DNA of 60,623 nucleotides, taken from NCBI GenBank assembly GCA_013115135.1, contig JABANP010000311.1, positions 1 to 60,623 of the forward strand, in the 5' to 3' direction. Origin of the DNA: Perkinsus olseni (Eukaryota > Perkinsozoa > Perkinsida > Perkinsidae). A program made the translations under genes and the position numbers. Within the stretch, counting starts at the first letter, position 1, and every line of letters starts with the position of its first letter. Below are positions 149 to 58,761 of this stretch, in pieces. The notes below the pieces were generated by a model. That model had not been told where the DNA came from. It saw only the letters and a list, made by a program, of their open reading frames with translations, and searched no databases.

Positions 149-170
149 AGAAGAAATTCTTCTGAAGAAT
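149..170. repeat. 14-bp inverted-duplication event, W = AGAAGAAT (exact)
   Basis: aX at 149-155, reverse complement of W at 156-163, Xb at 164-170. The paralogous flank near 10749-10777 lacks the structure and is 14 bp shorter over the same interval. Confidence 0.9.
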
Positions 171-703
171 CTTTCATCGTATCATTCTCGGACTGGTAAC
201 ATAGTTATCAGTTATGACCTCGTCGGCTCCATTCGAAAGAACTTTACCGGCCAGGAGCATGTATCGTGTCTCTTCTGGTTCATAGGCATATCAGTGTACC
301 GATTGTATTCTGGTACCATTCAGAGATTTTCCATGAGATGAGCAGTTAACCTTTTATCGTTAGTATAATCATTCGGAACCCTTGTGGAGAACATATGAGT
401 ATGACCGAAGAAGGATGCGATCATCGGTAGGGTCGTTGGGAAGTTCGGAACGTCAAGTTTCAGCAAGGGTAACGTCATTATACCTCGTAGTGCTTACCCT
501 ACTTTACTACGGCGAGTGTGTTTAGTTGCTAGTTGGCAAATCAGCAGTAGCTGCTTCTGCCAATTCCATCGGTCCGATAGTATCGGACGAGGCATCGCGC
601 CGTGAAAACACGCCCTTGACCCTTCGGGAAGGAGGACACAAGAAATCCCAACGGATGGAGAGGCGATCCCAAAACACTTGCGGCGTCCCAGAGTTTGCAA
701 GTC

Positions 704-725
704 GATCAGACTCTGATCATCAGAG
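704..725. repeat. 14-bp inverted-duplication event, W = GATCAGAG (exact)
   Basis: aX 704-710, reverse complement 711-718, Xb 719-725. The related copy near 9208-9226 is 14 bp shorter and has a single site. Confidence 0.9.
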
Positions 726-1062
726 GAGGACCATTGCCCTCTCCGTGTGTACATGTTATTACAGAAGTGTGGAAGGAAAGGGCACCACTGATATGCTCTG
801 AGTCAGAGCTGTCATAGTTTCCCCAGGCGTCTGAGTATATGTCACGGGGTTCGAGAAGGGAAGATACTAAAACACTGAACTAACCCCCTGTCCGCTGACA
901 GCCGTCTCACACAATCACACTTCACACATATTCAAGGTGACACCGTTGTGCGGACTTTGCCCTCACAGCCCCTTGGACGCCTTGCCTGACGGGGACTCCA
1001 TCGATATAGGAAACACGTCAAAATCGTTTTATCACCCGAGCTTACATCCTTCTCTTGCGTGA

Positions 1063-1884
1063 ATGCCTCTCACTCACAGAATGAGGATGAGCTGCGAAGC
1101 CGGCACGAAGTCGAAGAGTTGGATGTCGTTTATCGCTGTCAACATCGTCCTGATACAAATGATCATTCCGGTCTGCGTTGATGCCCTTGACATGCATGGT
1201 ACCGTGACCAACCCCCTCCAGGACCCCGAGCTACGTTCCTTACGCCTGCCAGCTGTGGTTCAAAGCCCTCCAGACTGTTTGCCTCCGGGTAAGGGTTTTC
1301 AGGGAGAGAATCATTGCTGGTACGTTCTGAAGGGCCCTCACCAATTCAACGGTGGTGCACTCTTTGCCTCTAATAATTCTGGGTACACTGGGTTCGCCAC
1401 TCTGGAAATGGCGGTCATGCTGGCGTCTAACTCAAGTCCAGTCGATGTTGGTGTTTGGGCGGATGGCAAAACTATATGGCTCTTCAATCTACCAGCAGGG
1501 ATCTCGGTCGTGGTAGAACTCTCTATTCCTACATTCTCGAATACCGGTGGGTATAACTATCTCACTGGGAAAAGGCTCGATTTCCCGGTATTCCTGGAGG
1601 CTAACGCGACGGTTCCTGATGCCGGCGCGGTACGAGCGGGGGGCAATGGTACTGCCGTTGCTTTCGTCGATATGAGAGATGGAATGAGTGAGCTCCTGGC
1701 AACAGTCCGAGCGGAAGGCAAAGCTGGTCGCCTGAGCTCGAGGGTAATCCTCTACGCAGCCCTCGGGCCCTACGATGCGACTTTCGAACGTTGGGCATAC
1801 AGCGCCTACATTTCTTGCAACATATCCGCTGGGGGTAACCGAAGTTACTTCGAGGTATTACGCATCTTCGATGGCTGGGTGTGA
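1063..1884 (+). CDS. Secreted N-glycosylatable array-family protein, copy A (intact)
   Basis: I do not recognise a domain. The 273-residue product has a basic N-terminus followed by a hydrophobic stretch at about residues 20-40 (core FIAVNIVLIQMIIPVC) that ends in Val-Asp-Ala, as expected of a signal peptide, so it is probably exported. The mature part has a conserved Cys pair (CLPPG and HCW), a central block with NNSGYTG and VGVWADGKTIW, and at least six N-x-S/T sequons. The start is chosen because the same Met follows the same conserved flank (ending GCGTGA) in the copies at 10000 and 11623. It is single-exon, unlike most genes in this window. It is about 90 percent identical by eye to the copy at 11623. 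Function is unknown; a surface or secreted parasite protein is an inference from the signal and glycosylation sites only. Confidence 0.8.
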   Translation: MPLTHRMRMSCEAGTKSKSWMSFIAVNIVLIQMIIPVCVDALDMHGTVTNPLQDPELRSLRLPAVVQSPPDCLPPGKGFQGENHCWYVLKGPHQFNGGALFASNNSGYTGFATLEMAVMLASNSSPVDVGVWADGKTIWLFNLPAGISVVVELSIPTFSNTGGYNYLTGKRLDFPVFLEANATVPDAGAVRAGGNGTAVAFVDMRDGMSELLATVRAEGKAGRLSSRVILYAALGPYDATFERWAYSAYISCNISAGGNRSYFEVLRIFDGWV

Positions 1885-2640
1885 TGCCTAACTGCGGCCG
1901 TTATAGATATGGGATATGTTCGAGCCTTTCTCCGTCGACTCAATTATGCCGCTTGACCCTCAAGCTTCGCGCGACTCAATCAAATAGTCTCCAACTTGAA
2001 TCCCGTAAAAATTCCATCGTGTCATCGTCAAGCGGGAGACATCGTTCATCACTTATCACATATTCGTCTACATTCCAAAGTAAGCAACAGCTACGAGCAT
2101 GTAACGTGTCTCTCCAGATTCATGGGCATATCGTTGGACCGTTCTATCATCCCGTCCGTGATATTCTATCAGACGAGTGGTTTATCATTTATCGTCAGTA
2201 TACCATTCGCATACTACTTACATAAACTCTGTCGATAAAATGCGAGTATGACCGAAGGAGAGTGCGATGATCGCCCTGCGATCATCGGTGATGTTACTGT
2301 GGAGTTTGGAACGTCCAGTTCCAGCGAGAGTAATTTCATTATACCACGTAGTGCTCACACTACTTCACCAGGGCGAGAGTGCGTTTGGTTGCCAGTTGGG
2401 AATCAGCAGTAGCTGTTTCTGCGGAAACTATCCCTCCGACAGCATCGAAAGAGGCATAGTTCCGTAGAAAGCTCGCCTTGACCGTTTGTGGATAAGCTTA
2501 AAGGGGCAGGCTGAAGTGGAGGAGAGAAGGCAGTGATTATTCCGCCCGGGAGGTTCACCTGTTCCACTATCGGTTTGAGCTTCGAGCTCATCAATTGAAA
2601 CCATGCTCCCTGTGGCATTCATGAGTCCGAGAGGCGAAGA
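1885..2640 (+). repeat. Array 3'-flank repeat, copy 2
   Basis: Second copy of the shared 3' flank. It is collinear with 26-820 and 12445-13110 but carries two 14-bp events of its own (2262-2283 and, just beyond, 2661-2682). Short open frames in it are not conserved between copies, so I treat it as non-coding. Confidence 0.7.
2262..2283. repeat. 14-bp inverted-duplication event, W = GTGCGATC (one mismatch)
   Basis: aX 2262-2268, inverted copy 2269-2276, Xb 2277-2283. The paralogous flanks near 410-425 and 11060-11075 have a single site and are 14 bp shorter. Confidence 0.85.
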
Positions 2641-2660
2641 TAGTCGGCGCTATTAACTTG

Positions 2661-2682
2661 ACGTCAGGCTGACCTCGTCAGC
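2661..2682. repeat. 14-bp inverted-duplication event, W = ACGTCAGC (one mismatch)
   Basis: aX 2661-2667, inverted copy 2668-2675, Xb 2676-2682. The paralogue near 13248-13270 has one site and is 14 bp shorter. Confidence 0.85.
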
Positions 2683-2731
2683 TAAGAGTCGCTGCCAGAG
2701 ACGTTCAATCGGCCCCAAGTCCGATAGAAAA

Positions 2732-2762
2732 AGGTGAAGTTCACCTGGTTCACCTGGTGAAC
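2732..2762. repeat. Inverted-duplication event with an extra inverted unit, W = AGGTGAAC
   Basis: aX 2732-2738 and the reverse complement 2739-2746 are exact; a second near-copy of the inverted unit (9 bp, 2747-2755) precedes Xb at 2756-2762. Confidence 0.75.
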
Positions 2763-2985
2763 GCAGAACTCTGGGACGTTCATCGATTGTCCGCGTGAGA
2801 CGGAGCTAACGCTGGTTCGATGAAAAGTGGGGTACGCCCCACAAATAAGAAGCTATGCCTCATTGGCTTTCAGGATCCCACCTGTGAACGAACTCTCGAT
2901 GAGAGTCAAAAGCGCCGTTGATTTCGTCCATCTCGAGAGGGCATTCAGTAGTTGACCTGAACCAGAATATCGCAGAGCGGAACAG

Positions 2986-3007
2986 CTCACACGGTGTGAG
3001 TCACGCT
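2986..3007. repeat. 14-bp inverted-duplication event, W = CTCACACT (imperfect)
   Basis: aX 2986-2992, inverted copy 2993-3000, Xb 3001-3007 with two mismatches overall. The paralogue at about 13545-13567 is 14 bp shorter. Confidence 0.8.
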
Positions 3008-3023
3008 CCATCACATCCCCGTG

Positions 3024-3045
3024 GTCCCCACTGGGGACTCCCCAG
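3024..3045. repeat. 14-bp inverted-duplication event, W = GTCCCCAG (exact)
   Basis: aX 3024-3030, reverse complement 3031-3038, Xb 3039-3045. The paralogue near 13570-13583 is 14 bp shorter. It lies only 17 bp from the preceding event. Confidence 0.9.
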
Positions 3046-3099
3046 CGGACGCAGCCTCACCGACTTCCGAAAGAAGCGGTAATTAACGATCGTCAGCTG

Positions 3100-3600
3100 G
3101 CGGTTGCGGCAGCATGGAGTCAAGACCGGTTGCTCCTCTCAATATCGGGGCAATCTTCCGCTTCAGAGGGCGTTGTTACATTGACCTTAGTCTCAAAATC
3201 ATCCCAGACGGCGAGGCAGGGCCACGGTCTGAGAATGTTATCCCCAGTGTTGTCGTCATTGTGTTCTCAGCTTCTGCCTTATGTCAATGCAAACGACGAA
3301 TGCTTGACGACGATTGGCTCGAGAGCAGTTGGTTGCGTCCTCGAGCCAATGTGTACCTTCGGTGCATTACTATGCTACAGTCTTTGCCGGTGCCTCAAGA
3401 GGGTGTCGAATGGCATGTAGCTTGCTTCGAGCCATAAATGCAGTGTATTCCTCCCAGACCCATGAATTTTTATGTCATTCTCCTGATCTCACGGGCTACG
3501 ACCACTGTGCCGCACTATTTGCGCGGTCCTGTTGCTGCAGCCGAGACAGCCACCTCGGCGGGAATTCGTGCGTTCCGCACCACCAGGAGTGAACATACTG
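3100..3600. repeat. Array spacer repeat overlapping the helicase 3' end
   Basis: This block recurs at about 9240-9720 and in part at 11217-11350, each time a few hundred bases upstream of a family gene. Shared landmarks are the sequences around 3220-3245, 3497-3515 and 3540-3580. Here no family gene follows; instead the helicase gene begins, whose last codons lie inside the repeat. Confidence 0.7.
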
Positions 3601-6146
3601 GCAGACGATAGACGAGTAGATCTGACAGGACTGCGCGGCTGTACTGTGGGGTCGTTCTCGTCAGAAACAAACGGTGTACTTAGCACAACAGGAGGAGCTT
3701 CCGGTATGGGCCGGTGGGAGACCGTGACTTGAACCTCCCTAGCCTCTCTCAGCTTTTGCTTGCGCTGCTCTTTGGCTGTGAGGGCAGCGTCCTTGATGAG
3801 CCTCTCAAGAGCGTCTTCCGGTACATCAGGAATCTGTCGCGGCAGAACACGCCGCAGGACCGACTGTAGCTCTTGAGGAGTAGCACCAGCAACCATCTTC
3901 GGACTCACAAAGCCTGCATCATACAACTGCCGTGCCCAGGCCGGCGACAGCTTGGGTCTCTCAGACAGAGCGAGCAGCTCAGGCCGGCGATGGCACATGC
4001 CGGACAGGCGGCCAGCAAAGGTGTCGAAGACCGACTCCAGGACTCTCCAGTGGAGTTTGCCGCAGAGAACCGCAATGCACGAAGTAAAAGCACTGGCAGA
4101 GGATATGAGGGACTGCAGCAAGCCTCGGCCTATCTTCGATCCAAAGCGATGGATAACCTGTTCTATCGGTATCTCACACATTAGGGCCCAAATTAAGAGA
4201 GTACTGTAGAACTTCACGACACGGCGGCAACCTTCAGGATCGCGCTCTTTTGCAGCTTGACTGAGTCTCCCTTGTATCGAGGCTTGTTGAATCTTCGCCA
4301 TACTGATGCCAATAACATCCAGAGACGCTTGCTGCTGCTTATTAAGGTCGCCCTCGACAACGGCAGCATAGACATTCCAGTCGATCAACGACTCGGAAAC
4401 TGACGCTTCCCATGGCGTCGCCAGGTAGATTAAGTGGAGCTCTCCCTCCAGGCATAGACCGGTCTGATTGCGAAGGCGCTTCAGCTCCTCCCAAAGGACG
4501 ATACCTGCCTCACAGCTGAGGCCGCTAGCACACACAGCTCGTCCGAGAGGAGTGGCCATGTACAGCTGGTTGTCACGGTTGAAGTGGACCATCTCCGTCG
4601 ACAACAGGTACTTCATTCCGGCATGGACCGCAGGGAAATCCTCGGCTACGCTGTTGCGCCTTTTCTTCTGGTCGCTTGGTGGGTCGAGCTGGCGATCCAG
4701 GAAGGTGGCCCTTGCCAAACGCATGATCTGATCGTCCTTCATCTGGCCGGCCGTCGCCATAACCTCTAATAAGAGACGCTGTAAGCCTACACAGTTCTGG
4801 CCAAGAGCGCTTCTTAGAGGCGGCAACGCAGCCACGGCCATCGACGTTACACGTTTCTTCTCAACTTCGCTGGAGCAAATGACGTAGCTTTCACCCGAGG
4901 CACTAGAATGGCCCGACCGACCGGCTCTACCAGACATCTGTCGGTACCTTGTCGTGTCGAGGAACTCCGTGGCGATGAATGGAGTTCTAAAGACGACTCG
5001 CTGGGCAGGAAGGTTCACACCAGCTGCGAGAGTACTGGTACAAGTAAGGCACGTAATAGCTCCGCTTCTATATCCCCGCTCCACAATATCCCGCTCCTCA
5101 GTAGTGAGGCCGCTGTGGTGGAAGGCCACCCCGACCAAGATGCCATCAGCCAAGTTCTTGTCCAGCCCGGCGTCAGTGTTGCAGCTGCATAGCTCGAGCT
5201 CGGCACGCAGTTGAAGACGATGGTTATGGATATCCTGGGGCGCAGGAGGGGCGGACGCCCAGGGCAACGATTTGGTCAGAAGACCGCATGCTACCTCACA
5301 CTTCATTTTTGACGGGCAAAACACAAGTACTGAATTGCCGACTGATACGGCCTCCCACACGGCGAGCATGAACCCGTCGGTATCGGTCGCGGGCATGAGA
5401 CGGTTGGGATCCTCAAGTGCACGAACTGGTCTACGATCTCCATCACAAGTGAAGACAGTTCGCTTGCACACTACGTACTCGTGCAGGGGGACGGGCCGGA
5501 AGTCCGTGACGTAAAGGCTGGCGTCAAGCCAGGCTGCTACTTCAGAGACATTCGGAAGCGTCGCAGACATGCCGACTATTTGGCATGTCGGGGCAAAGTA
5601 CCGTACCTTAGCTACTAGGACTTCCAGGAGGTACCCCCGCTGACTATCGCCGAGGAGATGGAGTTCGTCCAATATCAGGCAACCTAGCAGCCGTGAGAGT
5701 TCTGACCCAGGATCAACCCCCGGCTGTTCCAGAAGGGCATTGACCAAGCTGTTAGCCTTCTCGATGGTGCATACTGCTATGTCGTACCGCTCCATCGCAA
5801 GGAAGTTGCCAGAAGAGCCTCCGTAGAAAGCCTGTACCTTGTACTGAGCAGGTCGGCAAAGACTCTGGAGGTAGGCCTCTTTCTCCGAGACCACACTGAT
5901 ATACGGTAACACGAATAAAGCACGACGGCCATCACCAGCAAGTCGGCGGAGCATGACGATCTCGGACACCAGTGTTTTACCGCCACTGGTTGGGGCACAG
6001 TAGATGAGGTTTCGGTTACCCTCGAGAGCACCAGGAAGGGAGAGGCATTCACTCTGCCACTCATAGAGCTGGTTCACACCTCTCGTCCGGTAAACCGATA
6101 CTAACGACTCCTTCAGTCCGAAGGAACCGATATCCATGAAAGCCAC
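3489..6146 (-). CDS. POLQ/HELQ-type superfamily 2 DNA helicase, no polymerase domain
   Basis: The 885-residue product is a Ski2-like helicase of the DNA polymerase theta/HELQ group, which unwinds DNA and strips RPA in break repair and fork restart. In order: Q-motif-like YEWQSEC near residue 30, Walker A APTSGGKT near 52, DELH box (ILDELHLLGD) near 160, SATLPN motif III, the group-specific DFRPVPL, FHHSGLT, CTSTLAAGVNLPA and motif VI QMSGRAGRSG, then winged-helix/ratchet and helix-hairpin-helix-like regions (ARQLYDAGF) up to about 770. The last 100 residues are low-complexity. Similarity in the N-terminal third is closest to the POLQ helicase half (LYEWQSECL, DIAVCTIEKAN), but there is no A-family polymerase domain, so HELQ-like architecture is possible too. 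It is intronless, in contrast to its neighbours beyond 13.9 kb, and its final 35 or so codons lie in an array repeat. Confidence 0.9.
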   Translation of the reverse strand: MAFMDIGSFGLKESLVSVYRTRGVNQLYEWQSECLSLPGALEGNRNLIYCAPTSGGKTLVSEIVMLRRLAGDGRRALFVLPYISVVSEKEAYLQSLCRPAQYKVQAFYGGSSGNFLAMERYDIAVCTIEKANSLVNALLEQPGVDPGSELSRLLGCLILDELHLLGDSQRGYLLEVLVAKVRYFAPTCQIVGMSATLPNVSEVAAWLDASLYVTDFRPVPLHEYVVCKRTVFTCDGDRRPVRALEDPNRLMPATDTDGFMLAVWEAVSVGNSVLVFCPSKMKCEVACGLLTKSLPWASAPPAPQDIHNHRLQLRAELELCSCNTDAGLDKNLADGILVGVAFHHSGLTTEERDIVERGYRSGAITCLTCTSTLAAGVNLPAQRVVFRTPFIATEFLDTTRYRQMSGRAGRSGHSSASGESYVICSSEVEKKRVTSMAVAALPPLRSALGQNCVGLQRLLLEVMATAGQMKDDQIMRLARATFLDRQLDPPSDQKKRRNSVAEDFPAVHAGMKYLLSTEMVHFNRDNQLYMATPLGRAVCASGLSCEAGIVLWEELKRLRNQTGLCLEGELHLIYLATPWEASVSESLIDWNVYAAVVEGDLNKQQQASLDVIGISMAKIQQASIQGRLSQAAKERDPEGCRRVVKFYSTLLIWALMCEIPIEQVIHRFGSKIGRGLLQSLISSASAFTSCIAVLCGKLHWRVLESVFDTFAGRLSGMCHRRPELLALSERPKLSPAWARQLYDAGFVSPKMVAGATPQELQSVLRRVLPRQIPDVPEDALERLIKDAALTAKEQRKQKLREAREVQVTVSHRPIPEAPPVVLSTPFVSDENDPTVQPRSPVRSTRLSSASMFTPGGAERTNSRRGGCLGCSNRTAQIVRHSGRSP

Positions 6147-7984: not shown

Positions 7985-9239
7985 AACGTTATTGGTAATT
8001 GTCAGAGTTCACACTGTATGTAACTCGATTATGTCTTTTGATGAAGCATTGTTTAGTCCCGGTCAACGAGCGAGATAGTACGGGGCATACGCCCCTCGAT
8101 CCCGTTTTGCTGTCGGAGACAGCATCATGTCGGAGCCGTTATGAAATGCTTAAGATAATTATCTTGGTGCTGCCCCGGTTCGTCCCGGTTGTGACCAGCT
8201 CGGTCAATCCTTTCCCATTCGTTTGAGCATCATCATGCCTGCTGTGATCGGCTATGTCGCTACGAGGATTGGAACTTAGAGTTCCAGTACCGCTTATCCT
8301 ATAGTGCATTGCGATGCTCACTAACGTGGTGGAATTCTGTTCTTCGGTATACATTATCACCTCAGCGCTAGGACCAATAGAATCTATTGGTCTATTAAAT
8401 AGATGCAGAAGGGTGTTGAGTTGCAAGTTTGCGCAACGCTTCAGGCACTTGCGGTAGCATTGGCAGGCGATGAGTCCTCATGCGGAAAGGACCCGATCGG
8501 AAATTGTGAAGTGGGTTTGTAGGAGGGATGACAATTTTCTCGAAAAATCCGCCGGCGTCAGTGGATAGGCTCAAGCCTCTAAACTCCATACGGCTTCAAT
8601 TGTGGTCTTCCGCTTGTCCCAATCACGCACCCGGGCGGCGCGAAATCGTAGAGAAGCATTGAAAAGGAGTCCTTTTCAATGCTTTTCAACTTTCATGCTT
8701 TTGCGAACCCTTTTCCTCCTTTTAAAGGACAGCGCGACGTTGTGCGCAGAACATGAAATAGACTTATCAACTATATTAGTGAGCGGCCCGCATTCGCGCC
8801 AAGTCAGCGCGCGGCCTCTATTTACTTGGCCTCCCGACACCCCAGGTTGCGTTCCGAAGTTACAACTGAGAAGAGACGACTACAGCATAGAGTAAAAAGA
8901 GCGGCTCTCGACTTTTTCGGTGCGATAGATTCCTCAGAGCTATCTCAATGGAGACATTCCGCTGCGGAATGTCTCGCGACGGGATGTCGCGCGGAATTTC
9001 TGCGAGACGGAGGCCACCACCAGTGGTGATTCACCACAGCCTGGCGATCAGACTACCCAGCCATCCCTGAGGTAACGCATGGAGTCATTCACGAACGCAG
9101 TAAACCGATGACACAAGTACAGTAGTCCGCAACTGATGCGACGCATCATCATCATTGGTGACAAGCCACCGGATACCATCTCAAACTACTTGCGGGTTCC
9201 CAGAATTTGCAAGTCTATCAGAGGAGACCCACTTCTCTC
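7985..9239. other. Intergenic with several odd-length palindromes
   Basis: No supported gene. Contains perfect inverted repeats with a single central base at 8656-8682 (13+1+13) and 8951-8975 (12+1+12), and the double inverted-duplication event at 8376-8405. Confidence 0.55.
8376..8405. repeat. Inverted-duplication event with extra unit, W = CAATAGAT
   Basis: aX 8376-8382, exact reverse complement 8383-8390, an extra 8-bp near-copy of the inverted unit 8391-8398, then Xb 8399-8405. Confidence 0.75.
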
Positions 9240-9300
9240 TCAATGTGTAGATGCTACAGAAGAAGCGTCTGTGGGGGGGGGGTTGTCGGTTTGAATCATC

Positions 9301-9322
9301 AGCTGGTCACCAGCTGCTGGTG
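9301..9322. repeat. 14-bp inverted-duplication event, W = AGCTGGTG (exact)
   Basis: aX 9301-9307, reverse complement 9308-9315, Xb 9316-9322. Confidence 0.88.
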
Positions 9323-9574: not shown

Positions 9575-9596
9575 CACTGATGGCCAGTGACTGGTC
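9575..9596. repeat. Probable 14-bp event, W = CACTGGTC (two mismatches)
   Basis: aX 9575-9581, inverted copy 9582-9589, Xb 9590-9596. It is degraded, so less certain than its neighbour at 9605. Confidence 0.6.
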
Positions 9597-9604: not shown

Positions 9605-9626
9605 ACGACCAGTGTTCGTCGACCAC
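9605..9626. repeat. 14-bp inverted-duplication event, W = ACGACCAC (one mismatch)
   Basis: aX 9605-9611, inverted copy 9612-9619, Xb 9620-9626. The paralogue at 3494-3512 has a single site and is 14 bp shorter. Confidence 0.88.
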
Positions 9627-9868
9627 TGTGCCGCACAATTTGCGCGGTCACGCTGATGCGACCGAGACAGGCAGCTCCGGGGAGATTTCTGCGGTCCGCA
9701 CGTTTTGCGATGTGGACCTGACAGCGGTTGAATCGTCATTCGAGATTGATGGGAACAGTTCACAGTGAACTCCACTAAATGCCGGCCGGACCTGATCTCG
9801 GAAGATCCCGGATCTGCCATTCGGCGTTACTCGGGTTAAGCCGTTTGGCTCCGAAGTCACGGTGACAC

Positions 9869-9890
9869 CGTTGTGGCACAACGGTTGTGC
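9869..9890. repeat. 14-bp inverted-duplication event, W = CGTTGTGC (exact)
   Basis: aX 9869-9875, reverse complement 9876-9883, Xb 9884-9890. The 5' flanks of the copies at 1063 (943-951) and 11623 lack it and are 14 bp shorter. It lies about 110 bp upstream of an array gene start. Confidence 0.92.
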
Positions 9891-10997: not shown

Positions 10998-11019
10998 TTG
11001 TGGACTCCACAATGTGGAG
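10998..11019. repeat. 14-bp inverted-duplication event, W = TTGTGGAG (exact)
   Basis: aX 10998-11004, reverse complement 11005-11012, Xb 11013-11019. The paralogue at 381-390 is 14 bp shorter. Confidence 0.93.
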
Positions 11020-11021: not shown

Positions 11022-11043
11022 CATACGACTCATATGATATGAG
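11022..11043. repeat. 14-bp inverted-duplication event, W = CATATGAG (one mismatch)
   Basis: aX 11022-11028, exact reverse complement 11029-11036, Xb 11037-11043. The paralogue at 391-402 is 14 bp shorter. Only 2 bp separate it from the previous event. Confidence 0.9.
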
Positions 11044-11231
11044 TATGACCGCAGAAGAATGCGATCATTGGTAGGATCGTTGGGAAGTTCGGAACGTCAA
11101 GTTCCAGCGAGGGTAACTTCATTATACCTCGTTGTGCTTACACTACTTTACTACGACGAGAGTGCGTTTGGTTGCCAAGTTACATGCCATTCCATATCGA
11201 TTTTCCAATGTTCTCTCGGGCTACGGTCACT

Positions 11232-11267
11232 GTGCCGCTGCGCCGCAGCGGCTGCGGCACTGCCGCA
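11232..11267. repeat. Two nested 14-bp events, W = GTGCCGCA and CGCTGCGG (both exact)
   Basis: The inner event is aX 11236-11242, inverted 11243-11250, Xb 11251-11257. Removing its 14 inserted bases leaves a second exact event spanning 11232-11267. The paralogues at 3506-3514 and 9629-9636 lack both; the interval is 28 bp longer here. Confidence 0.9.
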
Positions 11268-12444: not shown

Positions 12445-13927
12445 TGCGTAACTGTGATCGCTAGAGGTCCGGGATATGTTCGGGTTCTCTCTATCGATTT
12501 GATCATGGCTCATGACCATCAAGCTCCGTATTAATCAATCACATAGTCTTCAACTTGAATCCTAAAAAACAAGGGTTATCATCTGTGTCAAAATGAGTGT
12601 CTTTCGCCTTGTCAACATCGGACTGGTGACCTCGGTTATCACCTTGTCGGATCCAAGCAGAAGAAATCAACCGGCTACGAGCGTGTAACGTGTCTCTTCT
12701 GGATCAGAAGTTCTGGTTCATAGACACATCAGCGGAGCAATTTTATTCTGATACGATTCAGAGATTTTCCATGAGATGAGTTGTTATTACTGTGGTATCC
12801 ATTTACCGTTTGTATACCCATTCGCAGCCCTCGTCGAGAATGTGAGTATGACTTGAGAAGAATGCCACTATCGGTAGTGTCATTGTGAAGTTCGGAACGT
12901 CAAGTTCCAGCGAGGGTAACTTCATTATATCTCGTAGTTCTTACATAACTTTACTACGACGAGAGTGCGTTGGGTTGCCAGTGGGCGGATCAGCGGTAGC
13001 TGCTTCCGTCAATAGCACCCGTCATCCGACAGTAACGGGCGAGGCATCGTGCCGTAAAAAGCTTCCCTTGGCCCTTAGTGAAAAAGCCCAAGGAGCAGGC
13101 TGAAGTTGAGAATAGACGGCAGTGATAACCCTCCCAGGAGGTTCACCTGCTCCACTATCGGTCTGAAGTTCGGGCTCATCACTTGGAATCCTACTCCCCG
13201 TGGTACTCATGAATCCAAGAGGCGGGGAATCGTCGGCGCCATTGATTTTACGTCAGCGGAAAGTCTCTGCCGGAGACGTTCAATCGGCCTCAGGCCCCAT
13301 GCAATGAGCTGAGCCCACAGTTCTGAGAAGGTCATCTACACTTCTCATGGAATGCCTCTACAACTTGTTTGTTTGAGAGCGGAATGAGTCCCGCAAAGAA
13401 GAAGCTATGCCCTGTCGGCTCTCAAGATCTCACCAGGGGACGATCAGAAGTGTCGTTGTTTTCGTCCATCTCGGGTGACCAGGGGATACGCCGTAGCCAG
13501 AGAATATTCAATCAGATGACCTGAACCAGGGTATATCAGAATGGAACAGCTCACACTTCATCACATCCCCGTGTTCATCAGCGGACGTAGCCTCACCGAC
13601 TTCCGCAACAAGCGGCAATTAACAGTCACTCGCGGAGGTTTGCGCGATATCCGAGCTCCTCGTGTATACGCCGGTACCAACATCGGCGGTATCCCCATCA
13701 TCGATATCTCAGACATGCTGCACCCTCATCCACGGTGCAGATCTTGCTTGTTCCATGAACGCCATATTGTTTATCAAAAATCAACGACATCCTCCAGCAC
13801 TCGCAGGAAGCTCTGCAAATGAGATTTGCCGAACGATAGTACAGCGGACCTTCCCGGGATTGACCCAACTCAAGATTTATTGGAAGCAGCATCAACTTAT
13901 TGGTGAAACACTAAATATGACAGAGAA
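12445..13927. other. Array 3'-flank repeat, copy 4, then spacer
   Basis: 12445-13110 repeats the 3' flank seen at 26-820 and 1885-2640, and 13200-13660 resembles 2640-3100. One 14-bp event lies at 12696. No gene is supported before the CCA-adding enzyme ends at 13928. Confidence 0.6.
12696..12717. repeat. 14-bp inverted-duplication event, W = CTTCTGGT (one mismatch)
   Basis: aX 12696-12702, inverted copy 12703-12710, Xb 12711-12717. The paralogue at about 272-285 is 14 bp shorter. Confidence 0.88.
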
Positions 13928-31792: not shown

Positions 31793-33335
31793 ATGCCACG
31801 TCGTGACTGTCTAGCGATCCAGTTGGAGGAAGCAGATGCCCTCCGATCAGCCTATGACCCCGAGGTTGGCTTCATGTGGCTGCACCGACCAGCGAGCCCG
31901 GACGATGGGGATGTAGCGTAATAATAATACGGGGAGGTGGTCACAGCGGCACTTCTATGGCATTCCGCTCTTGTCAGCAGCTGTCTGGAGCGCTTTTCGG
32001 TGGAATGGACGTCCTCTTGACTTCGTCGCTCCAGTGTGTTATCGGTTTCAGTTACGCCATTACTATCCATGGCGAGACGGACGTCGAGGCAGACGCCACC
32101 TTCATGTTCACCCTCCCTAAAGGATATCCACTCGAGCTCGACGTGATACCCGAGGTTATAGCAGCCGAAGGGTCGGAGGCGGTGTGTAGTAAATTAAGTA
32201 CGACTGGGGGCCTACACCTCTCGTCAGTACCCCTGCCTTTACTTAGAGAAGTTGCAAGAGCTGATAGTGGGGAATATATGGACTCCAGCTGAAGGGCGGC
32301 TATGAATTCCCTATACTCGCTGCCCTCGCTCCTGTTAAGGGCCTACTCACCAAGGTGAGTCTCTTCGAAGTGCACAGGCGCGCCGGGGTTGTGAGTAGTA
32401 CACGGGGTCGTCATGTTGGTGCCCTTCAGTGCGGCGAAGCCTGGGAGGTGAAGGAAGAGGAGCGAGAAAAGCGAAAGGCAGAGGCCATCGAGCGACAGAA
32501 GGCCGAGGCTCACCGAGCTGAGCTGATGCGGAAGGAGGCAGAGAAAGAATACAATGCCTGGGCTGATCAGATGGCTGCCATACAGGTGGGGACTGCTGCA
32601 CGGACTGCCAGGGCCTGGCAGCCAGGCTGTCGGTGTGAGTCAGTTTCCAGGAGCGCAAGGACGAGCTCGACAAGGAGACCGCAAGGGCTAAGAGTGGTTC
32701 TAAGGGGAAGCGGGGAAATAAGGCGCCTAGGGCGGTGGACCCCACTGATTGGAAAGAGGGGGAGCCTATAACGCAGATGAAGGTGTGGCCGCTCTTTTGT
32801 GCCTAGACGTCTGCGCCGTTTTTTAGACAGCTGTTTGGTTCAGTCCAAATTCCAAGCCCACTTAGCATTCGTCGAGACCGAGGAGGACGTAGACATCGCG
32901 CTGAGCACTCTAAAACGGAGCCACAAGATCCTGCGGGCCTACAACATGTACGCCTATCGGTTCAAGACAAGAGAGAGCAACGGTAGAGACAAGTCTGCCG
33001 ACCTCGGTAGGGACGCCCGCATGAGTTTCGCTAGCGGTGGATTGCTCACTCCCTCAGGCTATCACCAGGACCATGACTCTGATGGGGAGGGCGGAGCGGG
33101 GACGAAGCTTCAAGAGCTCCTCACGCTCACTGGCGCTGAGGGAGTCTTGGTGGTCGTTTCTCGGTACGTGTATGTTCGGGCTCTCAACCGTGACTGGCTC
33201 GCCTGTAGGTGGTACGGTGGCATCCACATGGGTCCCCTGCGGTTCAAGCTTATTAACCGAGTAGCCCGGCAGATCCTCGAGGACGAGGGGGTCATCGTCC
33301 CTGGTGCCCATCACGGTGGCAAAAAGTCTAAATAG
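31793..33335 (+). CDS. IMPACT/YIH1 homologue, copy 1 (one frame break)
   Basis: IMPACT binds GCN1 and restrains the GCN2 kinase. The N-terminal RWD domain starts LAIQLEEADALRSAY and continues after a 65-nt intron with YAITIHGETDVEADATFMF-type strands and LPKGYPLELD. A charged helical linker follows (KEEEREKRKAEAIERQK). The C-terminal UPF0029 domain has QSKFQAHLAFVE, SGYHQDHDSDGEGGAGTKLQ after an intron, and VVVSR joined over a 45-nt intron to WYGGIHMGPLRFKLINRVAR. Relative to copy 2 there is one extra C near 32285 that breaks the RWD end, and ATHNMYAYR of copy 2 is AYNMYAYR here, losing a conserved Thr-His. One intron (32586-32646) holds a 14-bp inverted duplication. It may be a real gene with an assembly indel or a decaying copy. 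Confidence 0.85.
32606..32627. repeat. 14-bp inverted-duplication event in an intron, W = TGCCAGGC (exact)
   Basis: aX 32606-32612, reverse complement 32613-32620, Xb 32621-32627, inside an intron of IMPACT copy 1. The matching intron of copy 2 (about 34736-34787) has no such structure. Confidence 0.9.
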
Positions 33336-50741: not shown

Positions 50742-52569
50742 CTACAACCAGAGGGAGGGTGGAGCCCAACAATCATAACCCAACCCATTCAGTACCAATG
50801 TCAGCGTTTTGATCTCGCCCTCACAACGATATGGTACTCCATGCTTCTGACACAACTCCATCACTAACGGCTGTACTGCAGGCAGGGAGTGCCGTGGGAG
50901 ACGAGGGAAGAGATGGTGCTCTATTTGGTACTCTAGGCCTGCCAAGAGCGAACCTCGGGGCCAAAGGAAGACATGCGCACTACCTCCCCAAAACCAGTGC
51001 GCCCGAGTGTCGACATTCCGACTGGTGTGGCACTGCAATCTGAACCATCTCGGCTCCTCGTTTGAGTGGAAACAGTTAACAGCCAGATGAGACACCAGCA
51101 GCTGGACCTGACACGACCAAGCTTGGCGACGTTGAAGTAGGGGGACGAAAGCCGCTACGTGTAGTATTCCAGCTGTGCAGTTCGATAGGAGAACAAAGAC
51201 TAATCGACTCTCGGGGGGTACCAGATGGTAGGTGAGCTGGGAGTACCTGAGCGGAAAAGGGCCGGCGATAGAAGCAGGGTCGGAGACGCTACTGTTATCA
51301 CTACCATATCCAAAAGAGACACATGCCAGAGAGGTCCGCTAGGGGAACGCAGTGCAGAGGGATCGGCCGCGCCTTGACGTAGTACTGTAAGGCACGCTTA
51401 CACGACTAATAGGAGAAGACAGAAACGTGCTTCTGGATTCAGCCACTGAAAGCGACTTACAAATATGACACTGATGAAATAAAAATTGAACCGTCCAATA
51501 GTCATAGCGAGAGGGGTGCCAGTACGAAGTGTTGTACTGGTACCATAACTCTCGCTATTATCATCTCCAACTTGCTGGAATACGGCAACTCCTTGCGACT
51601 TATCAAGAAAGTCGGCAAGTAGTTGAACTGGGGGTCCTCACGGGGACGACGAGGGAAAGCAATGATGCGCCTGTTGATGAATCATCATTGATGATGAAGA
51701 AGAGCATCAACGGTCCACTTGGGCGCGTGGCAGGAAAAATCGCATCTTACCGCGTGCTCCTCGCTCCACATACTAGACGATATACCAAATAGAACAGAGC
51801 CAATAAACCATCCGATCCACGAAGGGGATCTTCCATCACCATCGCCATAGCCTCTGTGGCATGCGTCGTGGGCGATGAATGCACCCTGAAGGGAAGTGCT
51901 CCTGTCAGGAGACCACCATCCCTACGACTATTACCTGCTGCCAAAATAAACCCAGGCTGATTGCTCCCAGCAAGATCCAGCCGCGATAGAGGCTTGCTAG
52001 TGCAAGAAAGAGAAAGGAAAGGACTATGGCGATGCGTCCAATATAATACGAGTTCCTGAATCACCGGAATATTTTTCCGAGCAAAGCCCTACTACCCACA
52101 CGGTCTACTTCTGTTGATAATATCCCAACTCCCTGACACGGCGTTCTAGTGCAATGAAATCAGCCTCAGCCTCATCTTCGACCGAAGACTGCTTCAGTCG
52201 GCCAATAGCCAGCGGAGGGAGGAAATGTTTGGCCACCCTGGGGTGGTGGATACCCCGGAAGAGAGACGTTACGTCACGACCGAGGCAGCTAAGGAGCACT
52301 TCGCCACCTACGGACGCGCTTGTGGACCACAGCGCTTGCACCTACCCAATACTACCTGGATGCCGTCCGTCCATCACCCACTCCTTCACGTTATATACTA
52401 TGTTATCAATTACAACAAAACCATGTCGGCGCACTTCCTCCATGGTGAACTCAGCGATGTCGTCGACGCGAATAATTTCCACTTTAAAGTCCTGCAGCGG
52501 ACTGCCTGTCCTCTCGGTGGACGCCGTCGAGGCGGGTGAAGGCGGGCTGACCAGTTGATGGCCGGGCAT
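50742..52569 (-). CDS. Front-end fatty acid desaturase with N-terminal cytochrome b5
   Basis: A membrane diiron desaturase introducing a double bond between an existing one and the carboxyl end of a polyunsaturated acyl chain. Near the N-terminus VVIDNIVYNVKEWVMDGRHPG joins over an intron to GEVLLSCLGRDVTS, a cytochrome b5 haem-binding HPGG. Helices follow (IAIVLSFLFLALASLYRGW). The first His box is in FIAHDACHRGYG, the exon ending MWSEEHA; the third is QIEHHLFPRLPRHSLPAVQP, with Gln replacing the first His, as in front-end desaturases. The middle His box lies in the intron-broken region 51100-51760, which I could not fully join. Perkinsids are known to make arachidonate with such enzymes; regiospecificity is not readable. 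A 55-bp stem-loop lies at 51504. Confidence 0.85.
51504..51558. repeat. Long imperfect stem-loop within the desaturase gene
   Basis: ATAGCGAGAG at 51504-51513 pairs with 51549-51558, and GCCAGTAC at 51518-51525 pairs imperfectly with GTACTGGTACC at 51534-51544. Probably intronic. Confidence 0.5.
51674..51695. repeat. Possible 14-bp event, W = ATGATGAT (one mismatch, low complexity)
   Basis: aX 51674-51680, inverted copy 51681-51688, Xb 51689-51695. Because the site is ATG-rich this may be chance. Confidence 0.4.
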
Positions 52570-54464: not shown

Positions 54465-57149
54465 CTACGCGCTCTCATGCGTGAGCCGAAGTTGCGCACA
54501 CAAAGAATCACAATGTACAAGAAAATCGCTTCGACAAGAGAACATCAGTCGGAATCTTGCCCCGCAGTCTCGGGAAGACGAGGACCGTCTACTTTCATCT
54601 TCCAAGCAGTCGAAGATGTGCTGCCTCATGTCAGATTCCCGAAATAGGAACTTATCTGGTTGTTGATGAGGCGACGCAGCATAGGCTGTCAGGCGTGCCA
54701 GCACGAACGCCCCACAAAGATTACTGCCGACGGTTTGCTGTTGAATGGAGGGGCAAACCACCTTGGCACCGGTTCCGTAGAGCTCCCTCAGCCTTTTCTT
54801 CATGTAATCCGAGATCCTGCCCTGCTCCCCGTATGAACTATCGAAATAAAATATGTCACCATTTAGCCGTGTAGTGCAGGTAAAGTGACAACCACCATCA
54901 GATATGGGCTGCAACACAACCAGATCGTTATCAGGTACAGGTGAAAACCCGACAGGCGATAGCCACACTGCCTGAGCTTGATTGACCTTTCGTTTGAACT
55001 TGCGTTCAATACGAGTCATCCAAGCCTCTATCACCTGGTCGGAAATGCTCGAGCCCTCAGCAAGTAGATTATCTCGATCCTCAGTCGTCAACAGCAAGGT
55101 AGTACCCGATCCTCTCCCCGGGAGAACACGCCACGTTGGGAATAAGTTCCGTCCTTTGCCGCTCTTATGCCCGGTTCCATCTGAGGCTGACTTCTCCTGC
55201 GAAGCTGCTTCCGCTGTGATATCCTGAGATCCTGTCTTAGTTTGACTTGGCATCATAGGAGCCTCCACAAGAGAAGCTTCAGCTGGAGGGCTCCCCGCGA
55301 AAGCAGCTGCCGCCTCATTGAACATGTGGAGCAAACCATCGTCCAAGGTATACCCGTCAGGCGCCACGAGAAGTCCGGCGTCGTCGTTCGAAGGGTCCGA
55401 ATCCGGGGGAGAATCACCCGCATCGCAGGAGGTTACAGCTGCAACGCGCTTCCGCTGGTTCACTCCCGCGCCGTCGGTCTCGAAGTCAGCCTTGCGCTTC
55501 GCGTCAGCGGCAGGCTCAATGGTAGGAAACTCCAGAGACTCCGACTCGTCGACTTCGCGAGGCATATCTTTAACTATCCTCCTAATGGAAGCCCTCACTT
55601 TATCGAACCAGCTCCCAAGGCTTTCCGAATCTACCTTGAAGCGGCAAACCCTGCGCAATATCGCGTCATTCTCGAGGTATCGAGCCTCACGAGGCCAAAC
55701 TTCCCCCTCTCGAATCATAAGTAACTCAGCCCTTGTTTCCTTCATGAGGTCGTGGACCACGCTTATCCAAGCCCAAATCGTAGGATGGCTAGATCCAGGG
55801 AAATGGCCGTTCCAACGGTTGTGAAAGCCCTCCTGACCGTTATTGGTCCGGGGTAGTTCTTGCTCAACGCGCGAGCGCAGGTTCCACAACCTCGCTGGAT
55901 GAATACCCTTCACGCCGTAATAAGGACGGAGGTACTTCAAGAGAAAGCGGCGGTCCTCTCCCGACAGCTTATCGCAGATGAAGTCGATACCCAAATCTAC
56001 GAGAGAGAGGGGAAGAAAGGGAAGCGCTAGTATATCGTAGTATACCTCCTCCCTCAGCGCTTGCTGCTCCTTAGACGCAACCGGCTTTCGCACTAGACTC
56101 TCGAATTTCCGCCTTATGCTCTGGCAGAAGTGGAAGTAGCAAAGCACAACTTTCCCTTCCCCGAAAACACCTTCGAACGCTTTTCTCACAGCGTATTCGA
56201 CGTCCATCATGCAGCTCTCGACGTCCTGGGTTAGCGATCCCTCTATCGCTGCAAAGAACCTTTCGTAAGTATTTTGGTTCTTCCTCGGGAGAATGGCGTA
56301 AAATAGAGGGAACATGCGGCCACAGTCAAATCGGACCATCACCGTAAATTGCTGCGACCAATGCGTCGGGGAGGTTTTGAATGTTCCATCGACAGACATA
56401 TGGAACCCTCCTCCGTCGTTCTTCATCGCGTCCTTTACCCAAGGATCCATCCAGATGATAAGACGATCCTTATCCCCTTCGCCGCTATCGAATAACACGG
56501 TAGACCGACTCAAGCCTCCAGCATCCACGTGGGCAAATGCAGGTGGCAGAGCCGCTAGACCTTCTCGACTAGAAGGGGCCGTCGGTAGCCCGAGAGAGGC
56601 TTTTTTGGTTTTACGCAGAGTCTCATGTATCGCCTTGCGACTCGGCAGACCCCATCACTGCTGCGTTGTCCATTGTTGGAGTCACCTCGTGAAACGGCTC
56701 CATGACGCGTGCCCTCACCGGCAACTCTGCAGCCTTCTCCTTCATTTCAATGTAACCCTTCATAGAAGGCGCATCCGGATCCCCGCATGTGTGAGAACCT
56801 TTGACGGTTGCGGTGGCAAACCTCACGTCATCAGAATTACCCGTCACGAGTAGCCGAGCATGGCACTTGCGATATCCATTGCTCTTAAAGCCGCGATACC
56901 TCTTACAGCGACAAGAAAGGAGCCCCTTTCTCGAGCAGGTGAGCGATCGCTATTCCCAGCAGCATTCCGATGGTAGAGGTACCCTTCAAAAGCATAAAGA
57001 GTTGTCCCCTGACGCTCTCCACGAACTATTTCCAGCCGTGGGCCCGCGGTTTCGTCAGCAGGAGACACGGGGGCCACCATGCCAGGCTGGTCCGCATCTT
57101 CATGCAGCTGAGGTGTCCCAGAGGCGTGAGGAGGCGGGGTGGCGTCCAT
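54465..57149 (-). CDS. MULE transposase with FLYWCH-like N-terminus and Ulp1-like C-terminus (frame-broken)
   Basis: Read in minus orientation. 57149-56850 begins MDATPPPHASG and carries a FLYWCH-like start (LYAFEGYLYHRNA); after a one-base shift the zinc-finger part continues (YRGFKSNGYRKCHARLL, KGSHTC). A second shift near 56640 leads to RKAIHETLRKTKKASLGLP and the 687-residue frame 56528-54465. That frame has the DDE catalytic core: DGTFKTSP, MDVEYAVRKAF with CYFHFCQSIRRKF, and RTNNGQEGFHNRW, the MULE D-D-E plus C-x-H arrangement. After a 150-residue linker comes a C48-type cysteine protease fold: GGCHFT (His), YFDSSYGEQG (Asp), QQQTVGSNLCGAFVLARL (Gln and Cys). The element therefore looks autonomous in origin but mutated now. 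Confidence 0.85.
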
Positions 57150-57528
57150 ATTTCGTGGTTCGAAAGTGAAAAACTGAAGCGAGTCAATCAGTTTCGATCG
57201 GGCAAGCTAATCCGCCTGCCGAATTAGCAATACAATACAATCCACCATCCACTGCAGGACTGAATTTTGCTCAGCGAATCGAAACGATTCGCTAACGATT
57301 CAATCGTTAGTCACGATCAAGAAGCGCTCTCGTATCTCTACTACATTGGTGAACCCAAGATAATGAATAAAGCGATGGAGAATTGAAAGGCAGAGTGCAG
57401 TTCATCGTATACAACACACTCTGTTACGGCGTCGCCGCATGCCTGGCGCACCACGTTAAAATGCATCAGAACTAAATGCGGTCCCAATGCATGAGCCCGG
57501 CAACGGAGTTAGTGCGCTGTGTTGCTAA

Positions 57529-58527
57529 CTGGGTTTGCCCAAACTGGGAAAAACTCTGAGTATTTCCGGGAAAGGGAATTTCCCGGATATTTCCCCTTCC
57601 CAATTCCCGGAAAAACTCCGGCGAGTCTGAAACGGTGCCGGACGTGCCACATCTCCGGTCGGGACTTCCGAGCCGGAACTTTTGACTTCTATATAAACTC
57701 GGCAATCCCGTTAGCTACCTCGCTTAGCCACCGAGTCGGCCGGACGGCGAAGTTATCGAGAGTTTGTCTGCACGTCACTATCGCCAGGAACCACTGTATG
57801 CCCTGCTGGGGGTGTCGGAAGCGGATATGTACCCTACTGGGGTAACCCCAGCACCAGGGATCGAAGTCAGCAAACAACCGCGTTCTGGCAATGCCTCGGC
57901 AATGCCGTTCGGTACTTCGGTCAGCCTCCAAATCCGACGGGCTGCGAACTCAGCCAGAATCTTCCTATAGCTCTATAGAAGCTTTCATTATGCGTCGTGC
58001 TGTACTTGGTATAATTTTTAAGACCTCACTGCCACCAGGAAGCATTGTATGGATCGCTAGAGATGTCAGAAGTTATATGTACCACAGCTCAAGGGCTCGA
58101 AGTCAACGGACAACGACGTTGCGGCTCCCATTCGAGGAAGACAGCGCCATTCAGTACCTCGGTTAGCCACCGAGTCGGATGGAATGTGAACTCATCGAAA
58201 GTTAGCTCATACCTCATTATCATCAGGAAGCAGTGTTTTCGAAGCACTGTACAACCCGCTAAAGATGTCAGAAGCGGATATGTACCGCACTCATACACAC
58301 GTGGATGCACCTTATGAGTTCAAACCTAGCACAGCTGTCATATCGCCGTCGTTACCGCCTCACTCTCCACCCATTCTTCCACCGTGCGTATCTAGTGCAT
58401 CAACAAACTGCCTAGGAAGGTCAAGCGCATCATTTCCCAGGGAAAAATCCGGGATTTTTCCCAAGGGAAATATTTCCCGGAAATTCCCTGGGGAAAATTT
58501 TCCCATTTTCCCAGTGGGCAAACCCTG
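57529..58527. mobile_element. Nested non-autonomous hAT-like element, 999 bp
   Basis: Ends are C(T/A)GGGTTTGCCCA in inverted orientation (57529 onward; 58515-58527 reversed), followed on both sides by more inverted G/A-rich sequence (CTGGGAAAA). It is flanked by a perfect 8-bp duplication GTTGCTAA at 57521-57528 and 58528-58535. An 8-bp target duplication and CAGGG-type ends are hallmarks of the hAT superfamily. No transposase is encoded. Confidence 0.9.
57690..58300. repeat. Three imperfect internal repeats of about 200-230 bp
   Basis: Units begin near 57710, 57905 and 58145 with a TTAGCCACCGAGTCGG-like sequence and contain CAGGAA(C/G)CA(C/T)TGTATG and a later AAGATGTCAGAAG-like segment. 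They fill most of the nested element. Confidence 0.65.
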
Positions 58528-58694
58528 GTTGCTAAGGCCCGGTAGCATGCGTTGGTAAGACGTCTTTCTTTGAATGGTATTCGCTCCACCCGTTCTCCGA
58601 TTTGTGCACGCGTGTCAACGCTGCGTTGGCAGAACACTGGTTAAAGCTGTTACCGAAAACTTCTGCCATATCCCACTGATGATGAATCTGCGCC

Positions 58695-58716
58695 TGCTGA
58701 AGTTCAGCAGCTGAAC
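58695..58716. repeat. 14-bp inverted-duplication event, W = TGCTGAAC (exact)
   Basis: aX 58695-58701, reverse complement 58702-58709, Xb 58710-58716. It lies inside the Mutator-like element, outside the nested hAT element. Confidence 0.88.
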
Positions 58717-58739
58717 TGAGTTTAACCTCCTGCTGAAGG

Positions 58740-58761
58740 CTCAGAGCCTCTGTATCAGAGG
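58740..58761. repeat. 14-bp inverted-duplication event, W = CTCAGAGG (two mismatches)
   Basis: aX 58740-58746, inverted copy 58747-58754, Xb 58755-58761, 23 bp from the previous event. Confidence 0.7.

What the first reader, a model, noticed from the sequence alone, without database searches (positions are those of the whole stretch)
149..58761. A fixed-geometry 14-bp mutation: aXb becomes aX + reverse complement of aXb + Xb, at 21 sites
At 149, 704, 2262, 2661, 2732, 2986, 3024, 8376, 9301, 9575, 9605, 9869, 10787, 10998, 11022, 11232 (two nested), 12696, 32606, 58695 and 58740 an 8-base site W is followed, after its 7th base, by the full reverse complement of W and then by its last 7 bases. 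Arms (6 bases) and offsets (1 base each) are constant; W sequences share no motif. An exact 6-1-6-1-6 pattern should occur by chance about 60,623 x 4^-12, or 0.004 times, yet ten or so events are exact even in the 8-mer, and the rest differ by 1-2 bases. Such constancy points to one enzymatic process, not random hairpin growth.
Basis: seen in the sequence. Interest (0 to 1): 0.96.

Follow-up and report, generated by a model that had tools for sequence, protein, structure and literature searches.

The report
Genome-wide transposon excision scars, one geometry
This genome, likely that of the clam parasite Perkinsus olseni, carries many short scars in which an 8-base site has become "site, its reverse complement, site" with one fixed geometry; they are likely left where hAT-type jumping genes cut themselves out, and would form a readable record of past excisions.

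Summary
The pattern is real and not confined to the window. Exact units (8-base site, offset 1): 9 in the window and 18 in 150 kb from 15 other contigs, against 0 in all 260 dinucleotide shuffles. Neighbouring lengths and offsets stay near chance. Where a related copy without the unit was found, it mostly carries a plain W, so the unit is a 14-bp gain at an 8-bp site. The genome holds hAT transposase domains and hAT-like elements with 8-bp target duplications, several with an empty copy elsewhere. The hAT reaction (cut one base into the flank, flank hairpins) predicts both unusual joints if the two opened hairpins pair over the 8-base duplication. The short, variable palindromic footprints usual for hAT elsewhere are not in excess. 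The link to excision is inferred: no site was found occupied by an element in one copy and scarred in another. Best reading: uniform hAT excision scars, a new variant of a known kind.

The parts
149..170 (.). unit, exact, W=AGAAGAAT
440..461 (.). unit, 2 mismatches, W=GAAGTTCC; same unit also at 11084, 12887 and on contig C744, so older than these duplications
566..587 (.). unit, 2 mismatches
704..725 (.). unit, exact, W=GATCAGAG
2262..2283 (.). unit, 1 mismatch, W=GTGCGATC; 14 bp absent in a C744 copy (site there differs at 2 bases)
2661..2682 (.). unit, 1 mismatch, W=ACGTCAGC; related copies lack 11-12 bp
2732..2753 (.). unit, 2 mismatches
2986..3007 (.). unit, 2 mismatches, W=CTCACACT; related copy near 13530 has W without the 14 bp
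3024..3045 (.). unit, exact, W=GTCCCCAG; related copy near 13575 lacks 14 bp (site diverged)
9016..9037 (.). unit, 2 mismatches
9301..9322 (.). unit, exact, W=AGCTGGTG
9605..9626 (.). unit, 1 mismatch
9750..9771 (.). unit, 2 mismatches
9869..9890 (.). unit, exact, W=CGTTGTGC
10998..11019 (.). unit, exact, W=TTGTGGAG; related copy near 360 has W without the 14 bp
11022..11043 (.). unit, 2 mismatches, W=CATACGAG; related copy has CATATGAG without the 14 bp
11084..11105 (.). unit, 1 mismatch, shared with 440, 12887 and C744
11236..11257 (.). unit, exact, W=CGCTGCGG
11243..11264 (.). nested unit, 2 mismatches
12696..12717 (.). unit, 1 mismatch, W=CTTCTGGT; related copy near 272 has W exactly, without the 14 bp
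12887..12908 (.). unit, 1 mismatch, shared with 440, 11084 and C744
20159..20180 (.). unit, 1 mismatch
32606..32627 (.). unit, exact, W=TGCCAGGC
51674..51695 (.). unit, 1 mismatch
57830..57851 (.). unit, 2 mismatches, inside the 999-bp element
58226..58247 (.). unit, 2 mismatches, inside the 999-bp element
58695..58716 (.). unit, exact, W=TGCTGAAC
58740..58761 (.). unit, 2 mismatches
59223..59244 (.). unit, 1 mismatch
59421..59442 (.). unit, 2 mismatches
57529..58527 (.). 999-bp element with CWGGGTTTGCCC terminal inverted repeats, hAT-like by ends and duplication; absent from a near-identical copy on contig C945
57521..57528 (+). left copy of the 8-bp target-site duplication GTTGCTAA
58528..58535 (+). 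right copy of GTTGCTAA; C945 has a single GTTGCTAA

Best explanation
The 22-base units are likely excision scars of hAT-type DNA transposons: W is predicted to be the element's 8-bp target-site duplication, the transposase would cut one base into each flank and seal each flank as a hairpin, and the two opened hairpins would then pair over the 8-base site to give aX + rc(aXb) + Xb. Step 1 (element inserted, 8-bp duplication aXb...aXb): shown for several elements of this genome. Step 2 (nick between X and b on the left, and at the matching place on the right, and hairpin formation): known for Hermes and Ac/Ds, inferred here. It gives the left end aX joined to b'X'a' and the right end b'X' joined to aXb on the other strand, which are the two joints of the unit. 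Step 3 (hairpins opened away from their tips; b'X'a' of the left end pairs with aXb of the right end over 8 bases; tails trimmed, gaps filled): inferred from the single product in excess. The 8-base pairing is longer than the 6-base pairing (X with X') that would restore the site. Net effect: 8 bases become 22, a gain of 14.
For: Geometry: site length 8 with offset 1 has 51 exact units in about 250 kb; lengths 7 and 9 with offset 1 have 1 and 0, length 8 with offsets 0, 2 and 3 has none. Ancestral state: 10 of 120 distinct units matched another stretch of the fetched DNA after removal of 14 bp, 8 of them with W exact; most units had no second copy in the fetched DNA. Clean 14-bp differences with W intact in copies of 86-98% identity by the tools: C268/C288 and C901/C351, C206/C204, L018/C523. 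With well-matched flanks, 5 of 5 insertions of 14 bp between copies were units. Agent: 21 matches to the hAT dimerisation domain, all over its cut-off; DUF4371 and that domain in open frames. hAT-like elements with 8-bp duplications: 5 of 6 further distinct loci of the 999-bp family and 4 of 5 copies of the CAGTGTGGCTGAC family; the 2960-bp element of L031 that holds a hAT transposase has GCGGTCGG on both sides, and C288 has a single GCGGTCGG. Passages of papers: Hermes makes hairpins on flanking DNA and 8-bp duplications (PMC4763223, PMC10368747); Ds footprints have inverted repeats centred on the complement of the base bordering the element (PMC5873905). Weak: after symmetrising, T at site position 2 is 53 of 152 in W (p 0.066) and 12 of 26 in element duplications, in the direction of the Hermes preference nTnnnnAn.
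Against: No site was found with an element in one copy and a scar in the other: the five element sites with a related unoccupied copy (C945, C288, C901, C20, C211) have a plain site there, in C211 with 2 substitutions. Ordinary short P-nucleotide footprints, usual for hAT in plants and yeast, are not in excess, so the repair must be unusual. 49 of 192 one-base-loop palindromes with arms of 7 or more lie outside units, against 17 in a shuffle, so other hairpin products or decayed units may exist. One palindromic 14-bp insertion at window 2892, seen with looser flanks, is not a unit (6 mismatches). One CAGTGTGGCTGAC copy (L029) and one 999-bp copy (C592) have no duplication. Why hairpins would be opened far from the tip is not shown. 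A weak partial Ku match (28 bits) gives no support to the idea that Ku-dependent joining is missing. In the sampled DNA, units outnumber recognised elements.
Confidence: 0.73

Rival explanations
1. Another nuclease with the same geometry makes the scars: a different transposon superfamily with 8-bp duplications, or a domesticated hAT-like enzyme (as Kat1) that makes hairpin-capped breaks without an inserted element.
For: Units are more frequent than recognised elements in the sampled DNA; no occupied-versus-scarred pair was found. Kat1 shows that a hAT-like enzyme can make hairpin-capped breaks in a host role (PMC4763223, passages). A MULE transposase domain lies in the window, and a mosquito MULE makes 8- or 9-bp duplications (PMC5225508, passages).
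Against: A MULE with mixed 8/9-bp duplications should also give site-9 units: 0 exact. A break without a duplicated site offers no second copy of X to account for both arms (inference). Kat1 acts at one locus; W shows almost no motif.
Confidence: 0.16
2. Replication template switching: the polymerase jumps to the other strand, copies 8 bases back and returns.
For: The product can be written as a four-point template switch (model recalled); short templated inverted insertions by foldback are known in yeast (PMC11724301, start of abstract in the listing).
Against: Such products vary in length and offset (recalled; the yeast abstract gives about 5-34 bp); here length 8 and offset 1 are fixed. The joints X to b' and a' to X need no microhomology, and W sequences share no palindrome or motif.
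Confidence: 0.08
3. Chance or an artefact of sequencing or assembly.
For: None found.
Against: Zero exact units in 260 shuffles; partly decayed units shared by duplicated genes (440, 11084, 12887, C744) and by C460 and C543; 0 of 30 units lie in the ten large ORFs scanned, which make up 25% of the window.
Confidence: 0.01

Closest known systems
hAT excision footprints with P nucleotides (Ac/Ds; Tam3, Hermes, Tol2 recalled)
   Same: 8-bp duplication; flank hairpins; inverted repeats centred on the complement of the base next to the element (PMC5873905, passages; PMC1978519, passages).
   Different: Known sets are mixed: 28 different footprints among 128 Ds excisions in Candida. Here the one form in excess keeps both hairpin joints and one whole inverted site; the short forms are not in excess.
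Kat1 of Kluyveromyces lactis
   Same: A hAT-type enzyme that makes hairpin-capped breaks on flanking DNA (PMC4763223, passages).
   Different: Acts at the mating-type locus and leads to gene conversion; no 22-base unit is described in the passages seen.
Inverted triplications (ODIRA) and quasi-palindrome template switches
   Same: Direct-inverted-direct arrangement (PMC10766183, start of abstract in the listing).
   Different: Those are long or of varying length (recalled); here length and offset are fixed at 8 and 1.
Introner elements of Amoebophrya
   Same: Alveolate genome with transposon-like repeats flanked by direct repeats (PMC7789003, passages).
   Different: Those are introns with inserted sequence; the units hold no foreign sequence and depend only on W.

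Membership tests
hAT transposon elements (the proposed agent) | transposase with hAT dimerisation domain in the genome | tested here: met
   21 matches, all over the cut-off; DUF4371 and hAT dimer domain in open frames
hAT transposon elements (the proposed agent) | 8-bp target-site duplication | tested here: met
   9 of 11 loci of two families (5 of 6 and 4 of 5; misses C592 and L029); four more elements (window, L007, two in L031) were found by searching for one
hAT transposon elements (the proposed agent) | empty site with a single copy of the 8 bases | tested here: met
   C945, C288, C901, C20 exact; C211 with 2 substitutions
hAT excision footprint | palindromes centred on the complement of the base bordering the element | tested here: inconclusive
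   palindromes centred on b' and a' are part of each exact unit; one-base-loop palindromes of arm 7 are 118 against 16 in a shuffle, 95 of them in units, and palindromes without a centre base are not in excess. That an element bordered these bases is inferred
hAT excision footprint | variable P-nucleotide additions at the joint | tested here: not met
   only additions that sum to one whole inverted site are in excess: 61 against 1 control; the short 1+1 form 10 against 34 control. 49 palindromes outside units against 17 by chance leave room for some others
hAT excision footprint | deletions at the joint | not testable with these tools
   without the occupied state a deletion scar cannot be recognised
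hAT excision footprint | element present at the same site in another copy | tested here: inconclusive
   five element sites with a related unoccupied copy show a plain site, none a scar; the search scored 40 of 150 candidates only
template-switch mutation | variable length and offsets | tested here: not met
   grid of lengths and offsets

The most novel reading that the evidence does not exclude
This lineage repairs transposon hairpins by a near single-product route: both flank hairpins are kept whole, opened far from their tips and joined by pairing over the 8-base target duplication, so that each such excision writes a self-describing 22-base barcode (aX, rc(aXb), Xb). The genome then holds of the order of 7,000 exact and 15,000 near-exact scars (18 and 37 in a 150-kb sample, scaled to 61.5 Mb), a fossil record of excisions in which the lost target site can be read back from each scar.
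Probability: 0.45. Interest if true: 0.82.

Novelty: new variant of a known kind. Interest (0 to 1): 0.7.

Why it matters
Excision of cut-and-paste elements is mostly invisible in genomes because scars are short and mixed. A scar with one fixed geometry can be counted and dated, so excision rate, site choice and selection against frameshifts (+14) would become measurable from sequence alone. It also points to an unusual way of repairing hairpin-capped DNA ends, a problem shared with V(D)J recombination, and gives a simple signature to look for in other genomes.

Tried and rejected
Tried without gain: TRF on the window (two unrelated arrays); tRNA scan (none). A motif in W or its flanks: only a weak T2/A7 lean. 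Short variable P-nucleotide footprints: no excess. The long C460/C543 pair: the three unit sites checked by alignment (L023:2412, 4405, 8835) are shared, so not informative. Looking for split matches that would show an element at a scar site: empty sites and differences inside elements, no occupied-versus-scarred pair; the tool scored at most 40 candidates per search. A roughly 450-bp element in L030, absent from C206, has a 5-bp duplication and is not hAT-like. Missing Ku as the reason for the single product: one weak partial Ku match, so not supported. Rejected: MULE as the agent (no site-9 units); an array-specific process (exact units per kb similar in other contigs).

Corrections to my notebook, which cannot be changed: entry 2 says that all 14-bp differences are units (window 2892 is not) and entry 3 says 4 of 4 for the CAGTGTGGCTGAC family (4 of 5 with the L029 copy); entry 4 says at least 35 copies of the 157-bp repeat (32 further places).

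Not in print as far as searched: (open-licence PubMed Central only). Papers were seen as passages (PMC7789003, PMC5225508, PMC5873905, PMC4763223, PMC10368747, PMC1978519) or as starts of abstracts in listings (PMC10766183, PMC11724301, PMC12070250). PMC321453 was not held. The one-base offset of the cut rests on a passage about Ds and, for Hermes, on recall.
Full report
What was checked. The strict unit is aX + rc(aXb) + Xb with W = aXb of 8 bases, 22 bases in all, 14 of them determined by W. The window has 30 units with at most 2 mismatches: 9 exact, 9 with one and 12 with two. In 200 dinucleotide shuffles the means are 0, 0.005 and 0.21.

Controls on geometry. With 6-base arms the window has 10 exact 6-1-6-1-6 patterns and at most one at any other pair of offsets from 0 to 8; arms of 7 and 8 give none. 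In 190 kb of other contigs the same scan, offsets 0 to 6, gives 49 and at most 1. Over about 250 kb, site length 8 with offset 1 has 51 exact units; lengths 7 and 9 with offset 1 have 1 and 0; length 8 with offsets 0, 2 and 3 has none; the mirror (not complemented) control has 1. Length 6 with offset 2 has 5 and length 7 with offset 3 has 9, where about 4 are expected by chance. Length 10 with offset 3 has 6, which by algebra are the same units with one more matching base on either side.

Where it is. The window is a contig of a 61.5-Mb genome of 968 contigs, so in all likelihood a eukaryote. A transportin-3 gene in the window is 100% identical, over 89% of the query, to a Perkinsus olseni protein, an alveolate and a parasite of clams (start of abstract of PMC12070250); the species is therefore likely P. 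olseni. In 15 stretches of 10 kb (14 contig starts and one inner stretch) there are 18 exact units and 37 with at most 2 mismatches, unevenly spread: 7 of the 15 have no exact or one-mismatch unit. Scaled to the genome this is about 7,000 and 15,000; the sample is small and the figure rough. In the window 0 of 30 units lie in the ten large ORFs scanned, which make up 25% of it, as expected if a 14-base gain is removed by selection in genes.

Direction of change. Where a related copy without the unit was found, it mostly has plain W. In the first comparisons the window units at 2986, 10998, 11022 (site one base different) and 12696 and the units at L029:4861 and 5416 have such copies. With well-matched flanks, five of five 14-bp insertions between copies were units; with looser flanks one palindromic 14-bp insertion, at window 2892, is not a unit. 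In the systematic test, 10 of 120 distinct units matched another stretch after removal of 14 bases, 8 of these with W exact; most of the 120 had no second copy in the DNA at hand. Removal of other numbers of bases gave a few loose matches (5 at 20, 3 at 18, 2 at 17, 1 at 16, 1 at 13). Added by small fetches: C268/C288 and C901/C351, C206/C204, L018/C523. Other units are old and shared: one by three window genes and contig C744, and the three sites checked by alignment in C460/C543. At L030:8590 the C206 copy has lost 13 bases of the unit.

Agent. The genome has 21 matches to the hAT dimerisation domain, with DUF4371 and that domain in open frames; two copies on C941 and C816 are 99.8% identical over 1.9 kb, which suggests recent movement. 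Elements with hAT-like ends (CAGGGTTTGCCC, CAGTGTGGCTGAC, CAGGGTGGCC, TAGAGATGGGCA; likeness judged from recall) carry 8-bp duplications: 5 of 6 further distinct loci of the first family (C592 has none; C192 repeats the locus of C12 and is not counted) and 4 of 5 of the second (the L029 copy, which lacks its two outermost bases at each end, has none). The window's own 999-bp element (57529-58527) lies between two copies of GTTGCTAA, and contig C945 has the same flanks with a single GTTGCTAA. The 2960-bp element that holds a hAT transposase in L031 has GCGGTCGG on both sides and a single GCGGTCGG in C288.

Mechanism. hAT enzymes cut one base into the flank on one strand and join that end to the other strand, which leaves hairpins on the flanks (passages; Hermes detail recalled). 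For a duplication aXb this gives, on the left, aX joined to b'X'a' and, on the right, b'X' joined to aXb. These are the two joints of the unit. If both hairpins are opened away from the tip, b'X'a' of one end is complementary to aXb of the other over 8 bases; pairing there and repair give aX b'X'a' Xb. Hairpins opened at random and joined end to end would give many products. Of all splits of such additions, only those that sum to one whole inverted site are in excess: 61 against 1 in the control; the short classical form (one base from each side) has 10 against 34. Of 192 one-base-loop palindromes with arms of 7 or more, 143 lie in units (95 of 118 at arm 7); a shuffle has 17 in all. The 49 outside units exceed chance somewhat and may hold decayed units, single-hairpin products or unrelated repeats. 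Palindromes without a centre base are not in excess. What is shown: geometry, direction of change, elements with 8-bp duplications. What is inferred: that the units come from excision, and the pairing step.

Against. No copy pair was found with an element at W in one and the unit in the other; the five element sites with a related unoccupied copy show a plain site (in C211 with 2 substitutions). The search that could have found more scored only 40 of 150 candidates, many of one repeat. Absence of Ku was tested as a possible reason for the single product and not supported (one weak partial match). A POLQ-type helicase gene is present in the window, which fits pairing-based repair but proves nothing.

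Verdict. A real, genome-wide, fixed-geometry change, best read as the uniform excision scar of hAT-type transposons. It works like hAT footprints but does not show one usual feature of them, the variety of products, and is therefore filed as a new variant of a known kind.

Noticed in passing
window 3489-6146 (-): Open frame with DEAD, Helicase_C and POLQ helical domains, 91% to an unnamed protein and 41% to the best named one (a Symbiodinium-type label); a candidate helper of pairing-based end joining.
   Followed up: partly
window 54013-60623: MULE-type transposon copy: MULE domain in ORF 54465-56528 (-) and inverted end repeats near 54013-54163 and 60464-60623, with six related copies that match both ends (C224, C191, C159, C424, C657, C769).
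   Followed up: partly
window 2886-2910: A palindromic 14-bp insertion (ACTCTCGATGAGAG) against the related copy near 13450 that does not fit the unit.
   Followed up: partly
L029:6795-7815 against C19 (L046) and C211 (L047): One copy of the CAGTGTGGCTGAC family lacks the two outermost bases at each end and sits beside an inverted copy of its target region (GGCAAGA against TCTTGCC of the empty site), as if an excision had been started or an older scar re-entered.
   Followed up: partly
C367 copy, L054 and L055: An element with duplication AGACTGCT lies at the edge of an exact unit (CTGCTACAGTAGCAGTGCTACT), with a second exact unit in the left flank.
   Followed up: partly
C460/C543, C204/C206, C268/C288, C98/C110, C259/C410: Several loci exist as similar pairs on other contigs (89-100% by matched stretch), which looks like divergent haplotypes or a polyploid genome kept apart in the assembly.
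   Followed up: no
window 8728-8884: A repeat of about 157 bp with 32 further matching places, some partial.
   Followed up: no
window 1063-1884, 7367-7747, 10000-10740, 11623-12444: Tandem family of related, secreted-looking proteins (three of the four ORFs scanned, no Pfam match), also on C744 and C286; the region 1-13,700 around it holds 21 of the window's 30 units.
   Followed up: partly
L030 near 7260-7704: Element of about 450 bp with a 5-bp duplication, absent from C206, with some fifteen matching places, several partial.
   Followed up: no
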